DNA from: Stappia stellulata
GTDB lineage: Bacteria; Pseudomonadota; Alphaproteobacteria; Rhizobiales; Stappiaceae
Assembly: GCF_020176715.1 (NCBI RefSeq)
Contig: NZ_JAIVMF010000003.1
Location: 186,001-250,000, forward strand
DNA length: 64,000 nucleotides
Direction of reading: 5' to 3'
Below are positions 6,351-14,124 of the stretch, in pieces. How positions within the stretch are numbered: the stretch's first letter is position 1; each line of letters starts with the position of its first letter. The translations under genes were made by a program, and so were the position numbers. A model generated the notes under the pieces. That model did not search any database. It was not told the origin of the DNA and was given only the letters and a program-made list of their open reading frames with translations.

Positions 6351-9300
6351 TCAGGCGAGCTGGACCTCGACCACACCGGGGATCGTCTTCATCGCGCCGG
6401 CAATCTGGGGCGACAGGCGATAGCCGCCCGGAAGCTTGACCTCGACCTCCCGCGCCCCGCCCTCGGCCAGCACAACAACACTGACGTCGCCATCCCCGCG
6501 CTCGCCCAGGTGACGCTGCAGCCGGCGGGCCGCATCGGGGTGATTGAGGAACACCGTCAGGCTCCGCTGGACATGAAGAGCTGCATCCTCAAGCGGCTTG
6601 ACCGACTGGATCCTAAGGCTTGGCTCATCGTCGCGCATGTCGGCGCCGACGAGCAGCACCACGGATTTTCCAGGCTCCACCGCATCGCGGTATTGCTGCA
6701 GGGATTCCGAAAACAGCAGCGCCTCATATTGCCCCGTCGGATCGGACAGACGCACGATCCCCATGCGGTTGCCGGAGCGGGTCTTGCGCTCCTGGCGTCC
6801 GAGCACGGTTCCGGCCAGCCGGCCGGCGGTCGCCCCCTGCTTCACCGCCTGGGCGAAATCCGCCCACATCTGCACCCGCATGCGCTCCAGCAGCGGCATG
6901 TAGGAATCGAGCGGGTGGGCGGACAGATAAAAGCCGATAGCCGATTGTTCGCGCTGCAGCCGCTCCTCCGGCAGCCAGTCGTCCGTATTGGGGAGGTGCA
7001 CCTCCTCGCCCCCTTCGCTGCCGCCGAACATGTCGTTCTGTCCGCTCAGCGCCTCTTCGTCGGTGCGCTGCGCGACCCCCAGAATGCGGTCCATCCCGGC
7101 AACCAGACGGGCCCGGTTGGAATCCAGCGCATCGAAGGCACCGGCGTTGACAAGGCTTTCCAGTGTCCGTTTGTTCACCTGGCGCGCGCTGATACGGGTT
7201 GCGAAATCGCCGATGCTGGCGAAGGGCTTGGCGCCACGCACCTCGATGATGTGCTCCACCGCCTGTTCGCCGACGCCCTTGATCGCGCCCATGGCGTAGC
7301 GGATCTTCCCGTCCTCGACCGAGAAATGCACGCCGGAATGGTTCACCGAAGGCGGCAGGACCTCCACCTTCATCCGGCGCGCCTCGACACAGAAGTCGCT
7401 CAGCTTGTCGGTGTTTCCAAGATCCAGCGTCATCGACGCGGCCATGAATTCGACCGGGTGGTTGGCCTTGAGCCAGGCGGTCTGGTAGGAGACCAGCGCA
7501 TAGGCTGCGGCGTGCGACTTGTTGAAACCGTAGTTGGCGAATTTCGCGACCAGATCGAAGATCGAACCGGCCTGCCCCTTGTCGATGCCCCGCTCCACGG
7601 CCCCGTCGACGAACCGCGCCCGCTGCACTTCCATTTCAGCGGCGATCTTCTTGCCCATGGCACGGCGCAAAAGGTCGGCTTCACCGAGCGAATAGCCCGA
7701 CAGCACCTGGGCGATCTGCATCACCTGTTCCTGATAGACGATGATGCCATTCGTCTCGATCAGGATCGGCTCAAGCAGCGGATGCAGGCAATCGGGCTCC
7801 TGCTCGCCGTGCTTGACCGCATTGTAGACCGGGATGTTGTCCATCGGGCCCGGGCGGTAGAGCGCCACAAGGGCGATGATGTCCTCGAAGCGGTCCGGCT
7901 TCATGCCCGCGATCGCGCGACGCATGCCCTGACTTTCCAGCTGGAACACGCCGACGGTCTCGCCCGCCGCCAGCAGGCGATAGGTGGCCGGATCGTCCAT
8001 CGGCAAGCCGGCCATGTCGACGGTGATGCCCTTGTCGGCGATCAGCTTCACCGCCGTATCGATCACCGTAAGCGTCTTCAGACCGAGGAAGTCGAACTTG
8101 ACCAGCCCCGCCTGCTCCACCCACTTCATGTTGAACTGCGCAACCGGCATGTCGGAGCGCGGGTCGCGGTAGAGCGGAACCAGCTGCTCAAGCGGACGGT
8201 CGCCGATCACAACGCCGGCGGCATGCGTCGAGGCATGCCGGTAGAGGCCCTCGAGCTTCTGCGACATCGCCAGCAATCGCGCGACGATCTCCTCGTCGCG
8301 CTGCGCCTCCTGCAAGCGCGGCTCGTCGCGGATCGCCTGTTCGAGCGTGACCTGCTGGCCAGGCGTCGCCGGCACCATCTTGGACAGGCGGTCGACCTGG
8401 CCATAGGGCATCTGCAGGACGCGGCCGACATCGCGCAACACGGCGCGCGCCTGCAGCGTTCCGAAGGTGATGATCTGCGCAACCTGCGCCCGGCCGTATT
8501 TCTCCTGAACGTAGCGGATCACCTCCTCTCGGCGGTTCTGGCAGAAATCGATGTCGAAATCCGGCATCGACACACGTTCCGGATTAAGAAACCGCTCGAA
8601 CAGAAGCGCATAACGCATTGGATCAAGGTCGGTAATGGTCAATGACCATGCCACCAGAGAGCCGGCACCCGAGCCGCGGCCCGGCCCGACCGGGATGTCA
8701 TGCGCCTTCGCCCACTTGATGAAGTCCGCAACGATCAGGAAGTAACCGGGAAAGCGCATCCGCTCGATGACGCCAAGCTCATAGTCGAGACGGGACCAGT
8801 ACTCCTCCTCCGACACATTCGGCGCGAGGCCATGTGCGGCCAGCCGGGCGGACAGCCCCTCCTTTGCCTGCCGGCGCAACTCCTCGACCTCGGCCGTGAA
8901 GGCCGCTTCCGGGTCGTCGGACGCACCGGCGAATTGCGGCAGGATGGGCGCGTGCTTGAGCGGGCGCGCATGACAGCGGCGGGCAATCTCCACCGTGCTC
9001 GCGGTCGCCTCCGGCAGGTCGGCGAAGAGTTCCAGCATCTCCGCGCGGGTTTTGAAGCAATGCTCCGGTGTCAGCCGGCGCCGGTCGTCCTCGACGAGCA
9101 CACGCCCCTCGGAAATGCAGATCAGCGCGTCATGCGCTTCATAGTCGGCGCGATGGGCAAAGAACGGCTCGTTCGTCGCGACCAGCGGCAGGTCCAGCTC
9201 ATAGGCGAGCGCGACCATATCCGGCTCCGTCGCGATCTCTTCCGGCATGTCGTGACGCTGGACCTCGACGTACAGGCGGTCGGCGAAGCCGGCCTTCAAG

Positions 9301-9791
9301 GTCTGGAGCCGTGCGCGCGCCAGGGTCATGTCCCCGGCGACCAGAGCCTGTCCGACCGGCCCGGCAACCCCGCCGGTCAGCAGGATCAACCCGTCGGCAT
9401 GATCCAGGAGACGATCCGAGGTCACATGCGCCTGGACGGAAGGGTCGGTATCCAGATAGGCCCGGCTGACGATATCCATCAGGTTGGCGTAACCGGACTG
9501 ATCGGCGGCAAGCAGGACGACATCGCTCAGATGAACGGTCTCGCGTCCCTTCTTGACACCGCCGTCCTGAAAATCGACCGGGATCTGCACCCCGACGATC
9601 GGCTGCACCCCCGCCCCCCAGGCCTTTTCGGAGAACTCCAACGCGCCAAACAGATTGGCCGTGTCGGTGATCGCGATCGCCGGTTGGTCGTCGGCACGCG
9701 CCAGATCGATGAGCCGGCCGAGCGGCAACGCCCCCTCAAGCAGCGAGAAAGCCGAATGCACGCGCAGATGCACAAAACCGACGTCGGACAT
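6351..9791 (-). CDS. dnaE: DNA polymerase III alpha subunit
   Basis: Replicative DNA polymerase catalytic subunit, 1146 residues, the usual DnaE1 length. The order is an N-terminal PHP domain (LRVHSAFSLLEG, then ITDTANLFG), the C-family palm with GRGSGAGSLVAW and the catalytic motif PDFDIDF near residue 407, the fingers and little-finger domains (YRPGPMDNIPVYN, FNKSHAAAYALVSYQTAWLK), an HhH segment, and a C-terminal OB fold. The PHP site appears degenerate (ITDT where active forms have TDH), as in E. coli, so proofreading is probably supplied by a separate epsilon subunit. The ATG at 9791 gives the standard start MSDVGFVHLRVHS; a longer frame upstream is not conserved-looking. The next gene upstream, 187 bp away, is an SOS-type small ORF. 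Confidence 0.96.
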   Translation of the reverse strand: MSDVGFVHLRVHSAFSLLEGALPLGRLIDLARADDQPAIAITDTANLFGALEFSEKAWGAGVQPIVGVQIPVDFQDGGVKKGRETVHLSDVVLLAADQSGYANLMDIVSRAYLDTDPSVQAHVTSDRLLDHADGLILLTGGVAGPVGQALVAGDMTLARARLQTLKAGFADRLYVEVQRHDMPEEIATEPDMVALAYELDLPLVATNEPFFAHRADYEAHDALICISEGRVLVEDDRRRLTPEHCFKTRAEMLELFADLPEATASTVEIARRCHARPLKHAPILPQFAGASDDPEAAFTAEVEELRRQAKEGLSARLAAHGLAPNVSEEEYWSRLDYELGVIERMRFPGYFLIVADFIKWAKAHDIPVGPGRGSGAGSLVAWSLTITDLDPMRYALLFERFLNPERVSMPDFDIDFCQNRREEVIRYVQEKYGRAQVAQIITFGTLQARAVLRDVGRVLQMPYGQVDRLSKMVPATPGQQVTLEQAIRDEPRLQEAQRDEEIVARLLAMSQKLEGLYRHASTHAAGVVIGDRPLEQLVPLYRDPRSDMPVAQFNMKWVEQAGLVKFDFLGLKTLTVIDTAVKLIADKGITVDMAGLPMDDPATYRLLAAGETVGVFQLESQGMRRAIAGMKPDRFEDIIALVALYRPGPMDNIPVYNAVKHGEQEPDCLHPLLEPILIETNGIIVYQEQVMQIAQVLSGYSLGEADLLRRAMGKKIAAEMEVQRARFVDGAVERGIDKGQAGSIFDLVAKFANYGFNKSHAAAYALVSYQTAWLKANHPVEFMAASMTLDLGNTDKLSDFCVEARRMKVEVLPPSVNHSGVHFSVEDGKIRYAMGAIKGVGEQAVEHIIEVRGAKPFASIGDFATRISARQVNKRTLESLVNAGAFDALDSNRARLVAGMDRILGVAQRTDEEALSGQNDMFGGSEGGEEVHLPNTDDWLPEERLQREQSAIGFYLSAHPLDSYMPLLERMRVQMWADFAQAVKQGATAGRLAGTVLGRQERKTRSGNRMGIVRLSDPTGQYEALLFSESLQQYRDAVEPGKSVVLLVGADMRDDEPSLRIQSVKPLEDAALHVQRSLTVFLNHPDAARRLQRHLGERGDGDVSVVVLAEGGAREVEVKLPGGYRLSPQIAGAMKTIPGVVEVQLA

Positions 9792-9978
9792 GAACCCTCT
9801 TCGACCCTTGAGTTCCCGCGCGAACGCCGGTCTGCATTCGCGCCCCCGAGCGGAAGATCCCGCAAGGAAAAAGAGCGTCAAGTGTCGATGGTGCGAAAGC
9901 CCGTGTCGAGCCCCCGCACGGCTCCCTCCCCAGAAAGTGCCGGCTGCTCCACAGTGTCAAAACAGGGGAAGAGGCGCG

Positions 9979-10095
9979 TCAGACCCGCGCAAGCTCCACC
10001 AGAACGTCGCTCCAGATCAGCATCGTCGCGCCCAGCAGAACCAGGGATCCAAGCGCCGCCAGGTCCTGAAGTGTCTCTCGAAAATCGTCGAGCAT
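9979..10095 (-). CDS. 38-aa single-span membrane peptide, probably LexA-controlled
   Basis: A short ORF of 39 codons with an ATG preceded by GGGAGG at ideal spacing. The peptide begins MLDDFRETLQDL, has one hydrophobic span of about 18 residues (from ALGSLVLLG to IWSD) and ends LVELARV. This gives a short acidic N-terminal tail, one transmembrane helix and a very short C-terminus. Its promoter contains a perfect alphaproteobacterial SOS box between the -35 and -10 elements (10137-10151), giving a leader of about 30 nt. I do not recognise the sequence. A small, single-pass, LexA-regulated peptide is the architecture of SOS division inhibitors such as Caulobacter SidA; that function is inference. 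It could alternatively be the first cistron of a dnaE transcript. Confidence 0.7.
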   Translation of the reverse strand: MLDDFRETLQDLAALGSLVLLGATMLIWSDVLVELARV

Positions 10096-10131
10096 GGTGC
10101 CCTCCCGCGTCTCAAACCCTCGATAAAACCT

Positions 10132-10161
10132 AGTATGTTCTTGTTTTGTTCTTTTTGCAAG
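10132..10161 (-). promoter_or_regulatory. Promoter with embedded LexA (SOS) box
   Basis: On the minus strand CTTGCA (10156-10161) and CATACT (10132-10137) are 18 bp apart. The spacer carries GAAC-AAAACAA-GAAC (10137-10151; GTTC-N7-GTTC on the plus strand), the direct-repeat operator bound by alphaproteobacterial LexA. Bound LexA would cover both promoter elements. The nearest downstream minus-strand gene is the 38-aa membrane peptide. No comparable GTTC-N7-GTTC was noticed in the other intergenic regions I inspected. Confidence 0.8.
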
Positions 10162-10307
10162 TCCCTTGCGGCGGACCGACCACTGGCAGCGCGGTTATGG
10201 TAAAGGGATCCTGAACATTGCCGCGGCCGCGGCCCTTCACCACCGCGCCACGCCCTCGCTTTCCCTCTTGACCTTTTCGACCGCCACCGCGATCTTGCCG
10301 GCATCCA

Positions 10308-10361
10308 GAGGACGACCTCCCCGCCATGGGCACATTCGCCGGGACGACCCGGTTATGGGGA
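10308..10361 (+). promoter_or_regulatory. Guanidine-II (mini-ykkC) riboswitch
   Basis: Two hairpins carry the diagnostic ACGR tetraloop. P1 is GAGG-ACGA-CCTC (10308-10319) and P2 is CCGGG-ACGA-CCCGG (10339-10352), separated by 19 nt. P2 is followed after 4 nt by the Shine-Dalgarno GGGGA (10357-10361) of a guanidinium exporter gene. This is the complete architecture of the guanidine-II class, where guanidinium clamps the two loops together and frees the ribosome-binding site. TCCCC at 10318-10322, partly inside P1, is exactly complementary to the Shine-Dalgarno, providing an obvious OFF pairing. The class assignment rests on motif, spacing and downstream gene. Confidence 0.9.
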
Positions 10362-10366
10362 ATGAC

Positions 10367-10678
10367 ATGTCCTGGCTTCTTCTGATTGTCGCCGGTCTGC
10401 TCGAGGTCGTCTGGGCCTTCGCGATGAAACAATCCGCCGGCTTCTCTCGCCTCACCCCGACACTCTTGATGCTTGTCGCGATGCTCGGCTCCTTCACCTT
10501 GCTCGCGCTTACCATGCGCAGTCTGCCGCTCGGCACCGCCTATATGATCTGGACGGGCATCGGCGCCGTCGGCGCCTTCGCTGTGGGCGTGGCTTTTCTC
10601 GGCGAAGACCTGTCGCCGCAACGCATCATCGCCGCCGGACTGATCATCGCCGGAATGGTGACAATGAAACTGTCCTGA
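10367..10678 (+). CDS. gdx: Guanidinium exporter, SMR family (Gdx/SugE)
   Basis: Small inner-membrane antiporter that exchanges protons for guanidinium. The 103-residue protein has four predicted transmembrane helices, the essential glutamate at residue 13 in the GLLEVVWAF motif, and the Gdx-type stretches KQSAGFSRLTP, GTAYMIWTGIGAVGA and FLGEDLSPQR. It is closer to E. coli SugE/Gdx than to the drug exporter EmrE. The start at 10367 fits the SugE N-terminus MSWLLLI and places GGGGA 5 nt upstream; an in-frame ATG at 10355 would add four residues and lacks a free ribosome-binding site. Expression should rise with guanidinium through the upstream riboswitch. Confidence 0.92.
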   Translation: MSWLLLIVAGLLEVVWAFAMKQSAGFSRLTPTLLMLVAMLGSFTLLALTMRSLPLGTAYMIWTGIGAVGAFAVGVAFLGEDLSPQRIIAAGLIIAGMVTMKLS

Positions 10679-10695
10679 CGCGCGCCGCAAACGAA

Positions 10696-10725
10696 ACGGG
10701 GCGCGCCTGGCCTGGCGCGCCCCGT
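10696..10725. terminator. Hairpin terminator between convergent gdx and lolD
   Basis: A perfect 12-bp GC-rich stem (10696-10707 against 10714-10725) with a TGGCCT loop lies between the two convergent stops. On the minus strand it is followed by TTTCGTTT, so it best serves the proS-lolC-lolD transcript. On the plus strand the trailing bases are not T-rich, so termination of gdx there is less certain. Confidence 0.65.
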
Positions 10726-10752
10726 GACATGACGTCGTGATCGGCTCTCGAT

Positions 10753-11469
10753 CTACAGTTCCACGACCTGCCGGTCGCGAAGTGTGATCCGGCGATCCAT
10801 GCGCGAAGCGAGCTCCATGTTGTGCGTCGCGATCAGCGCCGCCAGACCTGACGCACGCACCAGCGCCACCAGCGCATCGAACACATAGGCGGAGGTCACG
10901 GGATCGAGGTTTCCGGTCGGCTCGTCGGCGAGGAGAACGCGCGGCGCATTGGCAACGGCACGCGCGATCGCAACCCGCTGCTGCTCGCCGCCGGAGAGCT
11001 CCGACGGCCGATGATCGGCCCGGGGGCCGAGCCGCATGTAGTCGAGCAGCTGGCTTGCGCGCTCGCGCGCCTCGCGCTTGTCGAGACCGCGGATCAGCTG
11101 CGGCATCATCAGGTTCTCAAGCGCGGTGAACTCCGGCAAAAGGTGATGGAACTGATAGACGAACCCCAGGCTGAGCCGGCGCATGCGGGTTCGTTCGGCA
11201 TCGGCCAACCCCTCGCAGGCAACGCCGCCGATCAGCACCTCGCCGCTGTCAGGGCGCTCCAGCAGGCCGGCAATATGCAAAAGGGTGGACTTGCCGGCTC
11301 CCGACGGCGCGACCAGCGCGACCAGCTCGCCCGGGTTCAGCGCGAGATTGGCATCGCGCAGGATCTCCAGCTGGCCCTCGCCCTCGCGAAAGGCCCGGCA
11401 CACCCCGGACAGAACCAGCGGCAGCGCGTCGGCCTGCCCGTCGTGCAGATGCTCCATATCCATCGTCAT
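10753..11469 (-). CDS. lolD: Lipoprotein-releasing ABC transporter ATPase
   Basis: Cytosolic ATPase of the Lol system that extracts outer-membrane lipoproteins from the inner membrane and hands them to LolA. The 238-residue product has Walker [10 protein letters not shown] at about 54-62, a Q-loop ([17 protein letters not shown]) typical of the LolD/MacB type, the signature LSGGEQQR, and Walker [13 protein letters not shown]. Its ATG overlaps the lolC stop (ATGA), so the two are translationally coupled; longer upstream starts fall inside lolC and lack LolD-like sequence. It is the last gene of proS-lolC-lolD. Confidence 0.95.
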
Positions 11470-12755
11470 TCGTACCTGAGCGCCTCGACCGGATCCAGCC
11501 GGGCTGCGCGCCATGCCGGATAGAGTGTCGCCAGAAGCGACAGCACCATGGCCATCACGACGACGGAGAGCGTTTCCCCGGTGTCCATCTCCGCCGGCAG
11601 CCGGCTGAGGAAATAGAGTTCCGGCGAAAACAGCTCGGTGCGGGTCATCCAGGAAATCGCCTGCCGGATGCTCTCGATGTTGAGACAGACCACAAAGCCG
11701 AGGAGAAAGCCGGCAAGCGTGCCGACGATCCCGATGCTCGCGCCAGTGATCACGAACACCCTGAGGATCGCGCCGCGGGTGGCTCCCATGGTGCGCAGGA
11801 TGGCGATGTCGCGCCCCTTGTCCTTCACCAGCATTGTCATGCCGGAAATGATGTTGAGCGCCGCCACGATCACGATCAGCGTCAGGATCAGGAACATCAC
11901 GTTGCGCTCGACCTCGAGCGCGGAGAAGAACGTCATGTTGCGCGATCGCCAGTCGCTGACGAAGGCGGGGCGCCCCGCGCCTTCCTCGATCCTCGGGCGA
12001 AGCTCGCCGACCATGTCGGGATCCTCGGTGAACACCTCGATCCCGGTGGCGATGCCTTCCTGGTTGAAATAGAGCTGCGCCTCCGTCAGCGGCATGAAGG
12101 CGATCGTGCCGTCATACTCCGACATGCCGATCTCGAAGATCGCGGCAACCGGATAGCCCTTTACACGCGGCGTGACGCCAAGCGCCGTGACGTTGCCCCG
12201 CGGGCTGACCAGCGTGATGCGGTCGCCAACGGTCACGCCGAGCTGTTGCGCCATGCGCGTGCCGATCGCAAGCCCCTGCCCCTGGTCGAACCCGTCAAGC
12301 GTTCCGGTCTTCACCGTTTCCGCGACCAGCGGCAGCTTGCGCAGGTCCACTTCGCGAACGCCGCGCACGAGCGCGCCGAACGCCCCTGACGGCCCGGACA
12401 CCAGCGCTTGCCCTTCCACAAAGGGAAGCGTGAAGGTGACATTTTCGAGGTTCTCGATCCGGGCGGCGACGGCGTCATAGTCGTCGAGTTCGCTGCCGAT
12501 CGGCTGGATCAGCAGGTGGCCGTTGATGCCGAGGATCTTCGACAGCAACTCCCCGCGAAAGCCGTTCATCACCGCCATGACGATGATCAGCGTGGCAACG
12601 CCGAGCATGATGCCGAGAAAGGAAAAGCCGGCGATCACGGAAATGAAAGTCTCCCGGCGCCGCGACCGCAGGTAGCGACCGGCCAGCATCCACTCGAACC
12701 CGGCAAACATCCGGGTTTCGCCAACGTCCCTGCTCGTCGCCGCGCCGTCTGTCAT
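11466..12755 (-). CDS. lolC: Lipoprotein-releasing system transmembrane protein LolC/LolE
   Basis: Inner-membrane permease of the lipoprotein-release transporter. The 429-residue protein has the FtsX/MacB topology: one transmembrane helix after [21 protein letters not shown], a large periplasmic domain (about residues 50-270), and three C-terminal spans. The C-terminal region holds the conserved [20 protein letters not shown] motif that contacts the ATPase, and the protein ends [10 protein letters not shown]. Alphaproteobacteria usually have a single LolC/E-type permease acting as a homodimer, so it cannot be called C or E strictly. The ATG at 12755 has GAGAGGCGGGA upstream; MFAGFEW 15 codons later is an alternative start. 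Confidence 0.93.
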
Positions 12756-12792
12756 TCCCGCCTCTCGCGCCCCTGCGCCCGTTGACTGGGCC

Positions 12793-14124
12793 TCACGTGC
12801 CGGACCGGCTTTCGACCAGGCGGTTGACGGCATCCTGCACCGACATCGCGACACGTTCGCCGCTCGCGCGATTCTTGAGCTCGACCGTACCGTCCTTCAA
12901 GCCCCGCGGACCGACGACAAGCTGCCACGGAAGCCCGATAAGATCCATCGTCGCGAATTTCGCGCCCGCACGCGTGTCGACATCGTCGAGGAGCACCTCA
13001 AGGCCCGCTGCGGTGAGTTGCGCCTCGATGTCGTCGCAGGCAGCATCGGTCGCCGCGTCGCCAGGCTTCAGATTGATCAGGCCGACGTCGAACGGCGCGA
13101 CGGAGGCGGGCCACACGATGCCGTCGTCATCGTGATGCGCCTCGATGATCGCACCGAGAAGCCGCGACACACCAACGCCGTAGGAGCCCATGTGAACCGG
13201 CACCTCGACGCCGTCGGGGCCGGCGACCTTCGCGTTCATCGGCTCGGAGTACTTCGTGCCGAAATAGAAGATGTGTCCCACCTCAATGCCCCGTGCCGAC
13301 ATGCGCGCATCTTCCGCAATCGCCTCATAGGCTGCGGCGTCATGCATCTCGTCGGTCGCGGCATAAGGCGCCGTCCAGGCGTCGATCACCGGCGTCAGAT
13401 CGGATTCGAAATCCGTGTCCTCGCCCGGGATCGGCAGGTCGAGAATGGCCTTGTCGCAGAACACCTCGCTCTCGCCGGTCGAGGCCAGGATGATGAATTC
13501 GTGGCTCATGTCGCCGCCGATCGGCCCGGTGTCCGCCCGCATCGGAATGGCCTTCAGGCCCATCCGGTCGAAGGTCCGCAGATAGGCGACGAACATGCGA
13601 TTGTAGGCGTGGCGCGCGCCTTCCTTGTCCAGATCGAAGGAATAGGCGTCCTTCATCAGGAACTCGCGGCCACGCATGATGCCGAAGCGGGGACGCAGCT
13701 CGTCGCGGAACTTCCACTGGATATGGTAGAGATTGAGCGGCAGGTCCTTGTAGGAGCGCACCGAGCCCCGGAAGATCTCCGTGATCATTTCCTCGTTCGT
13801 CGGCCCGTAGAGCATGGCCCGCTCCTGACGGTCCTGGATGCGCAGCATCTCCTTGCCATAGGCGTTGTAGCGCCCGCTTTCCATCCACAGGTCGGCCGGC
13901 TGGATGGTCGGCATGAGAAGCTCGTTGGCGCCTGCGCGATTCTGCTCCTCGCGCACGATCTGCTCGATCTTGCGCAGCACGCGCAGCCCCAGCGGCAGCC
14001 ATGCGTAGATGCCCGCCGCCTCCTGGCGGATCAGCCCGGCGCGCAGCATCAGCCGGTGGGAGACGATTTCCGCCTCCTTGGGCGTTTCCTTCAGGATCGG
14101 AAGAAAATAGCGGGACAGGCGCAT
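12793..14124 (-). CDS. proS: Prolyl-tRNA synthetase (short, class II)
   Basis: Charges tRNA-Pro with proline. The 443-residue length and the absence of the roughly 180-residue editing insertion place it in the short alphaproteobacterial/mitochondrial-like form. Visible class II motifs are [24 protein letters not shown] near residue 24, the [11 protein letters not shown] motif, the motif-2 stretch [25 protein letters not shown] near 145, motif 3 [15 protein letters not shown], and a C-terminal anticodon-binding domain. It starts [18 protein letters not shown] at 14124 and heads proS-lolC-lolD. Loss of the editing insert means Ala-tRNA-Pro must be cleared in trans if at all; that is family knowledge. 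Confidence 0.96.

What the first reader, a model, noticed from the sequence alone, without database searches (positions are those of the whole stretch)
9979..10161. SOS-controlled 38-aa membrane peptide, candidate division inhibitor
Seen: a 39-codon ORF with GGGAGG ribosome-binding site encoding an acidic tail, one transmembrane helix and a very short C-terminus; upstream, CTTGCA and CATACT 18 bp apart with GAAC-AAAACAA-GAAC exactly inside the promoter. Known: alphaproteobacterial LexA binds GTTC/GAAC-N7 direct repeats, and Caulobacter SidA is a 29-residue LexA-regulated inner-membrane peptide that blocks division through FtsW. Inference: this is an SOS-induced peptide acting on the divisome or another membrane complex. 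I do not recognise the sequence as SidA, so it may be a separate family, and at this length it is easily missed by gene callers.
Basis: partly seen in the sequence, partly recalled or inferred. Interest (0 to 1): 0.88.

Follow-up and report, generated by a model that had tools for sequence, protein, structure and literature searches.

The report
Unrecognised SidA-type SOS division-brake peptide
A 38-residue membrane peptide, probably switched on by DNA damage, sits in the same chromosomal slot as Caulobacter's cell-division inhibitor SidA and looks like its unrecognised relative, which suggests that this damage checkpoint is old and widespread in alphaproteobacteria.

Summary
The ORF at 9979-10095 (-) encodes MLDDFRETLQDLAALGSLVLLGATMLIWSDVLVELARV, with a GAAC-N7-GAAC box inside its promoter. 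The box alone is not above chance, but conservation is decisive: all 13 congeners have the peptide, and 28 of 30 family loci have the exact box just upstream. dN/dS is below 0.4. The same motif precedes recA, ssb/uvrA, imuA and lexA in this genome.

The peptide lies between lolD and dnaE. In Caulobacter vibrioides the place directly upstream of dnaE holds a 29-residue ORF that matches NCBI's SidA model (72 bits). So this is most likely the SidA locus: a divergent, unnamed orthologue, not a separate family. NCBI's model misses it and passed its cut-off in 1 of 374 class genomes. In 109 dnaE-upstream regions not chosen by the peptide, 20 (12 of 65 families) hold box plus short membrane ORF, against 0 antisense and 2 of 2180 resampled controls.

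Most likely mechanism: LexA cleavage releases the peptide, which inserts in the inner membrane and holds the FtsW/FtsI/FtsN complex inactive, as published for SidA. LexA control is strongly inferred; division inhibition and FtsW binding are inferred from orthology only. One lineage carries an N-terminally extended form.

The parts
9979..10095 (-). 38-aa SidA-type membrane peptide ORF (ATG 10095, stop 9981-9979)
   Evidence: found in 13 of 13 congeners; dN/dS 0.06-0.36 in nine pairs
10101..10106 (-). GGGAGG ribosome-binding site
   Evidence: sequence; same GGGAGGG spacing in close relatives
10132..10137 (-). CATACT, -10-like hexamer; its first C is the last base of the LexA box
   Evidence: sequence; consensus of 40 loci CATAaT
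10137..10151 (-). LexA-type box GAAC-AAAACAA-GAAC
   Evidence: exact box upstream in 28 of 30 family loci; same motif before ORFs that read as recA, ssb, uvrA, imuA and before lexA in this genome
10156..10161 (-). CTTGCA, -35-like hexamer (TTGCAA in register)
   Evidence: sequence; TTG 2-12 bp before the box in 39 of 40 loci
6351..9791 (-). dnaE, replicative DNA polymerase III alpha, the conserved downstream neighbour
   Evidence: NF004226 1477.5 bits over cut-off 1002; error-prone DnaE model NF004225 610.7, below its cut-off 939
10753..11514 (-). lolD-like ABC ATPase ORF, upstream neighbour
   Evidence: best model TIGR02211 LolD 253 bits, below its cut-off 307.75; synteny
11466..12854 (-). 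lolC/E permease ORF
   Evidence: TIGR02212 486 bits over cut-off 362.45

Best explanation
It is an orthologue of sidA, the SOS-induced division inhibitor gene of Caulobacter, kept in the same slot directly upstream of dnaE. LexA sits on the GAAC-N7-GAAC box between the -35 and -10 elements and keeps the promoter shut (inferred, strong). DNA damage leads RecA to trigger LexA self-cleavage and the peptide is made (inferred from the box and from the same box at recA, ssb/uvrA, imuA and lexA). The 38-residue product inserts in the inner membrane as one helix (inferred from hydropathy). It holds the FtsW/FtsI/FtsN septal wall-synthesis complex in its inactive state until repair is done (inferred from published work on SidA). 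The gene, its conservation, its box and its place are shown; every step from LexA binding onward is inferred. Sub-estimates: orthology about 0.93, LexA control about 0.93, division inhibitor about 0.8, FtsW as direct target about 0.65.
For: Conserved frame: 13 of 13 congeners at E <= 1.6e-5 and 22 of 23 other genomes of the family at E <= 0.29, some of them weak on their own; dN/dS 0.06-0.36 in nine pairs; pairwise differences at codon positions 1/2/3 are 993/609/1485 over 14 loci. Conserved box: 28 of 30 family loci, 14 of the 18 best-scoring order loci outside the family (13, L051), 18 of 20 further order loci that I picked from the hit list. Same place: dnaE follows in 30 of 30 family loci. 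In named C. vibrioides DSM 9893 (L304) a 29-codon ORF lies between a divergent nucleoside hydrolase (PF01156) and dnaE and scores 72.4 bits on NCBIfam NF033228, SidA, cut-off 35. That order fits the literature: dnaE CC1926 (PMC1839093), sidA CCNA_02004 (PMC10769358), CCNA_02005 nucleoside hydrolase (PMC3667746) (passages). The SidA of G618, over the cut-off, has lolE-lolD-peptide-dnaE as here (L343). Sequence: an HMM of 43 order peptides without Caulobacterales scores 11 Caulobacterales peptides at 9.8-20.2 bits; 0-5 of 2800 shuffles score as high. Test not started from the peptide: 20 of 109 dnaE-upstream regions have exact box plus membrane ORF, against 0 antisense and 2 of 2180 resampled. 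FtsW is present.
Against: NF033228 does not report the window peptide. BLASTP of window peptide against C. vibrioides SidA finds nothing at E <= 100. Profile-profile comparison is weak alone: probability 19, P 0.0012, 16 columns. C. vibrioides SidA itself is the lowest of the 11 in the HMM test (9.8 bits, 5 of 2800 shuffles; best of 33 unrelated TM-like ORFs 9.1). Of 17 class peptides found by box and place, 9 score no better than 15 or more of 2800 shuffles, one of them below half of the shuffles; for those, relation rests on place and box alone. 87 of 109 class dnaE-upstream regions show no such gene even with one box mismatch, so it is not universal. The opposite orientation GTTC-N7-GTTC occurs in 11 of the same 109 regions against 20 for GAAC-N7-GAAC, so the box alone is not specific there. 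The C-terminal half differs (VWSDVL against FVWMMC). FtsW A31, whose change to K suppresses SidA in Caulobacter (PMC4211646), aligns to G here (read by eye, numbered from the first Met of the C. vibrioides ORF). No expression or phenotype data.
Confidence: 0.8

Rival explanations
1. SOS-induced membrane toxin of the TisB or DinQ kind: the peptide depolarises or perturbs the inner membrane and slows growth generally, and division stops only as a side effect.
For: SOS-linked single-helix or membrane toxins exist in E. coli (DinQ: PMC3567139, abstract start seen; TisB: PMC11575346, title and abstract start seen; LexA control of TisB recalled). Length and hydropathy fit either kind.
Against: Same locus as sidA. 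Rfam shows no antitoxin RNA in 9000-11000. Sequence positions through the helix are conserved over many families, more than a general membrane disruptor would seem to need.
Confidence: 0.1
2. A leader peptide: the LexA promoter really serves dnaE, and the short ORF only tunes translation or transcription of the replicative polymerase.
For: dnaE follows on the same strand in all 30 family loci, 187 bp downstream here; no terminator-like site was found in 9880-10360 (the rest of the gap, 9792-9879, was not scanned).
Against: The amino-acid sequence is under purifying selection; the Caulobacter counterpart at the same place is a published inhibitor. Two of 18 order loci have lolD/lolE but no dnaE match in the DNA held (L041, L049).
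Confidence: 0.05
3. The peptide is a SidA descendant that now acts on another membrane complex, for example the polar-growth machinery or the neighbouring Lol lipoprotein exporter.
For: The C-terminal half differs from Caulobacter SidA. One SEDS-family match was found in this genome, whereas C. vibrioides has two. lolD/lolE lie next to it.
Against: No evidence of contact with any other complex; lolD/lolE neighbour a SidA over the NCBI cut-off too (L343).
Confidence: 0.12

Closest known systems
SidA of Caulobacter crescentus (CCNA_02004; NCBIfam NF033228)
   Same: Short single-helix membrane peptide, LexA-type box in the promoter, directly upstream of dnaE on the same strand; shared pattern R-[DE]-x-x-A-[LF]-x-S-[LV] at the start of the helix in the typical members (the window peptide has Q for R).
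   Different: 38 against 29 residues; acidic N-terminus; C-terminal half VWSDVL-like instead of FVWMMC; not reported by NF033228; here lolD/lolE upstream, in C. vibrioides a divergent nucleoside hydrolase.
DidA of Caulobacter
   Same: Small single-helix division inhibitor induced by DNA damage (PMC4211646, passages read).
   Different: 71 aa, SOS-independent (DriD), binds FtsN.
YneA, SosA and ChiZ of other phyla
   Same: Small SOS- or damage-induced membrane inhibitors of late division; AlphaFold 3 models, not of high confidence, place the helices of ChiZ, SosA and SidA on FtsW TM7 (PMC13396833, passages read).
   Different: Different proteins; YneA and ChiZ carry LysM domains; no sequence or locus relation looked for here.
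TisB and DinQ of E. coli
   Same: SOS-linked small membrane peptides (listings and abstract starts; the rest recalled).
   Different: Toxins with antisense RNA (recalled for TisB; abstract start for DinQ); no such RNA family match here.

Membership tests
SidA (as a locus: dnaE-linked SOS division inhibitor) | short ORF with a single membrane helix | tested here: met
   38 aa, best 19-residue hydropathy mean 1.9; C. vibrioides SidA 29 aa, 2.08; helix not shown experimentally
SidA (as a locus: dnaE-linked SOS division inhibitor) | directly upstream of dnaE, same strand | tested here: met
   window, 30 of 30 family loci, 13 of 13 Caulobacterales genomes chosen from the 80 loci
SidA (as a locus: dnaE-linked SOS division inhibitor) | LexA box in the promoter | tested here: met
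   10137-10151; 28 of 30 family loci; in Caulobacterales 7 of 13 exact and 13 of 13 with at most one mismatch
SidA (as a locus: dnaE-linked SOS division inhibitor) | sequence relation to Caulobacter SidA | tested here: met
   weak but above controls: HMM 9.8-20.2 bits for 11 SidA peptides, 0-5 of 2800 shuffles as high; hhalign P 0.0012; BLASTP none
NCBIfam equivalog NF033228 (div_inhib_SidA) | score of at least 35 bits | tested here: not met
   no match up to E 10. It is therefore not filed under this curated equivalog, which was over its cut-off in 1 of 374 class genomes
SidA (as a locus: dnaE-linked SOS division inhibitor) | induced by DNA damage through LexA | not testable with these tools
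   needs transcript data with and without LexA
SidA (as a locus: dnaE-linked SOS division inhibitor) | binds FtsW and blocks division | not testable with these tools
   FtsW gene present; position of Caulobacter A31 is G here (by eye)
TisB/DinQ type toxins | antisense antitoxin RNA at the locus | tested here: inconclusive
   Rfam search of 9000-11000 found no antitoxin family; an undescribed RNA cannot be excluded
DidA | SOS-independent induction, 71 aa | tested here: not met
   LexA-type box present, 38 aa; induction itself not testable

The most novel reading that the evidence does not exclude
SidA is an ancestral checkpoint of alphaproteobacteria, fixed next to the replicative polymerase gene, with fast-evolving peptides that the present NCBI model misses. 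In lineages where FtsW is the only SEDS enzyme (one match found in this genome), the peptide may brake the whole cell-wall growth programme, and one lineage has turned it into a protein of about 100 residues with an extra N-terminal part.
Probability: 0.45. Interest if true: 0.72.

Novelty: new member of a known kind. Interest (0 to 1): 0.6.

Why it matters
How alphaproteobacteria outside Caulobacter stop dividing after DNA damage appears little studied in the papers I could search. If this is right, the answer sits in front of dnaE in many of them, in a gene too short and too variable for the current NCBI model. It gives a ready set of natural SidA variants for mapping the contact with FtsW, and a simple locus rule (dnaE plus LexA box) for finding SOS division inhibitors where sequence searches fail.

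Tried and rejected
Chance ORF: rejected. The box as evidence on its own: rejected, 4 found against 2.15 expected. Separate family: rejected by the shared locus. Pfam and NCBIfam: no relevant match for the window peptide; the only Pfam line was SelB-wing_1 at E 0.058, 13.6 bits against a cut-off of 25. Plasmid records: no match for the peptide or the extended form. In one search two null ORFs scored 56.5 and 43.4 bits; one search showed that both are unlisted copies of the family; the remaining TM-like null is small (33). Many of the 212 of 297 order matches at E <= 1 are weak and not counted as members. Structure prediction was not run: one short helix would add nothing.

Literature: Modell 2011 (SidA) and Erill 2004 are not held; SidA function is taken from PMC4211646 and PMC13396833 (passages read). 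I saw no held paper that describes SidA outside Caulobacter (searches; most hits seen as listings and abstract starts only); Modell 2011 may discuss it.

Full report
What is there. The minus strand at 9979-10095 carries a 38-codon ORF with a good ribosome-binding site; a GAAC-N7-GAAC direct repeat lies between a TTGCAA and a CATACT. The box by itself is weak evidence: four matches in the window, 2.15 expected. The ORF lies between lolD/lolE and dnaE, all on the minus strand; a sugE-like gene with a guanidine-II riboswitch stands on the plus strand between lolD and the peptide. The dnaE is the replicative one: it passes NF004226 and stays below the error-prone model's cut-off.

It is a gene. 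A search of 61 genomes, own included, found the peptide in all 13 congeners and gave a match in 22 of 23 other genomes of the family at E <= 0.29. In nine pairs of congeners dN/dS is 0.06-0.36, and differences fall at codon positions 1/2/3 as 993/609/1485 over all pairs of 14 loci. The length is 38 aa in those 14 loci and 32-38 aa in the other 16 if the earlier start of L029 is taken.

It is very likely under LexA. The exact box sits 51-100 bp before the chosen ATG in 28 of 30 family loci; the two exceptions differ by one base. Among the 18 best-scoring loci from other families of the order, 14 have the exact box within about 90 bp of a start (13, counting the extended ORF of L057, and L051, cut at a contig end); the other four have degenerate boxes with one or two changed bases. 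Of 20 more order loci that I picked from the hit list, 18 have it. In the window's own genome 24 sites match GAAC-N7-GAACA, against 18 for the pattern read backwards, so most are chance. But sites stand before ORFs that read as ssb, uvrA, recA and imuA (names by eye), and one before lexA. That is the classical alphaproteobacterial LexA set (recalled).

It is the sidA locus. C. crescentus dnaE is CC1926 (PMC1839093), sidA is CCNA_02004 (PMC10769358) and CCNA_02005 is a nucleoside hydrolase (PMC3667746) (passages). I reached Caulobacterales with record titles through the collection scan with DnaN and looked upstream of dnaE in 13 genomes that I chose of the 80 loci. All 13 have a 29-30 codon ORF there: seven were listed by the script, six I read from the printed sequence. 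Seven have an exact box and all 13 have one with at most one mismatch. In C. vibrioides the ORF lies between a divergent nucleoside hydrolase and dnaE, and scores 72.4 bits on NCBI's SidA model, cut-off 35. A further SidA over the cut-off (G618) has lolE-lolD-peptide-dnaE, the window's own order apart from sugE.

Sequence agrees, weakly. A profile of the window's family against Caulobacterales SidA gives P 0.0012 over 16 columns; BLASTP finds nothing. An HMM of 43 peptides of the order, with no Caulobacterales, scores 11 SidA peptides at 9.8-20.2 bits; six beat all 2800 shuffles, four are matched by one shuffle and C. vibrioides itself, the lowest, by five. Of 17 class peptides found by box and place, eight are matched by at most two shuffles and nine by 15 or more, one of these by 1550. 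So the most distant ones rest on place and box alone. The shared pattern is R-[DE]-x-x-A-[LF]-x-S-[LV] at the start of the helix in typical members.

A test that does not start from the peptide. I took 109 regions upstream of dnaE from genomes of the class: 29 of the 30 loci (own genome left out) and 80 that I chose from its list to spread over families; a few belong to the window's order. An exact GAAC-N7-GAAC occurs in 20 regions, and in all 20 a membrane-like ORF of 25-50 aa starts 25-110 bp after it (12 of 65 families); allowing one mismatch, 22 regions, 13 families. The same scan of the opposite strand gives 0. Resampled sequence gives 2 of 2180 (5 of 2180 with one mismatch). Against this, the box in the other orientation, GTTC-N7-GTTC, occurs in 11 of the 109 regions, seven of them 53-94 bp before dnaE; none is followed by such an ORF on its own strand in the 900 bp scanned. 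And 87 of 109 regions have nothing of the kind: the gene is widespread but far from universal, or has moved or changed beyond this test. A profile search of 374 class genomes with A3 finds 31 at E <= 0.02, not all of them members. NCBI's SidA model passes its cut-off in 1 of 374.

How it most likely works. [quoted passage not shown] AlphaFold 3 models put its helix on FtsW TM7, not with high confidence (PMC13396833, passages). The simplest reading is that the window peptide does the same. The genome has one SEDS-family match, which aligns with FtsW, against two such matches in each of two Caulobacterales genomes. FtsW(A31K) strongly suppresses SidA in Caulobacter; that position is a glycine here (aligned by eye), so the same face could be used, but this is not evidence of contact.

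Limits. No expression, binding or phenotype data. Orthology rests mainly on position plus box, because the peptides are too short for strong similarity scores. NF033228, a curated equivalog, is not met, so I do not file the peptide under that model; I call it the sidA-locus orthologue that works like SidA.

Noticed in passing
L057, L354-L361 (family code f11): In nine loci of this family the SidA-like helix (IVRDVAALGALVLFGTMLxLVL in the best conserved group) is the C-terminus of a longer open frame, about 100 aa in that group, with a conserved TVRDF part before it; 8 of 9 have an exact GAAC-N7-GAAC upstream, about 30-50 bp before a possible start. No Pfam or NCBIfam match up to E 1 for the three sequences tried.
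   Followed up: partly
window 10304-10352 (+): Guanidine-II (mini-ykkC) riboswitch, 32.3 bits over gathering 32, just before a sugE-like gene (10367-10678; NF008512 119.9 bits, cut-off 126). Of the 30 family loci only L001-L003 and L016 show sugE in the DNA held.
   Followed up: partly
L118, L127, L152, L153, L157, L170, L174: Seven of 80 class regions have GTTC-N7-GTTC, the opposite orientation, 53-94 bp before the DnaE match; no peptide noticed there. Perhaps direct LexA control of dnaE, perhaps chance.
   Followed up: partly
L300-L312: Most Caulobacterales sidA promoters carry two or more near-perfect LexA boxes in tandem (for example GAACAAAACCGGAATATGGAACAAAACAAGAAA in C. vibrioides), unlike the single perfect box common in the window's order.
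   Followed up: no
L083 (own genome, C4:217607-217765): A second protein with a LexA DNA-binding domain match (24.4 bits, just over cut-off 23.7), 289-aa open frame.
   Followed up: no
window 10653-10725 (+): Partial match to Rhizobiales sRNA Atu_C9, 24.4 bits, below gathering 40.
   Followed up: no
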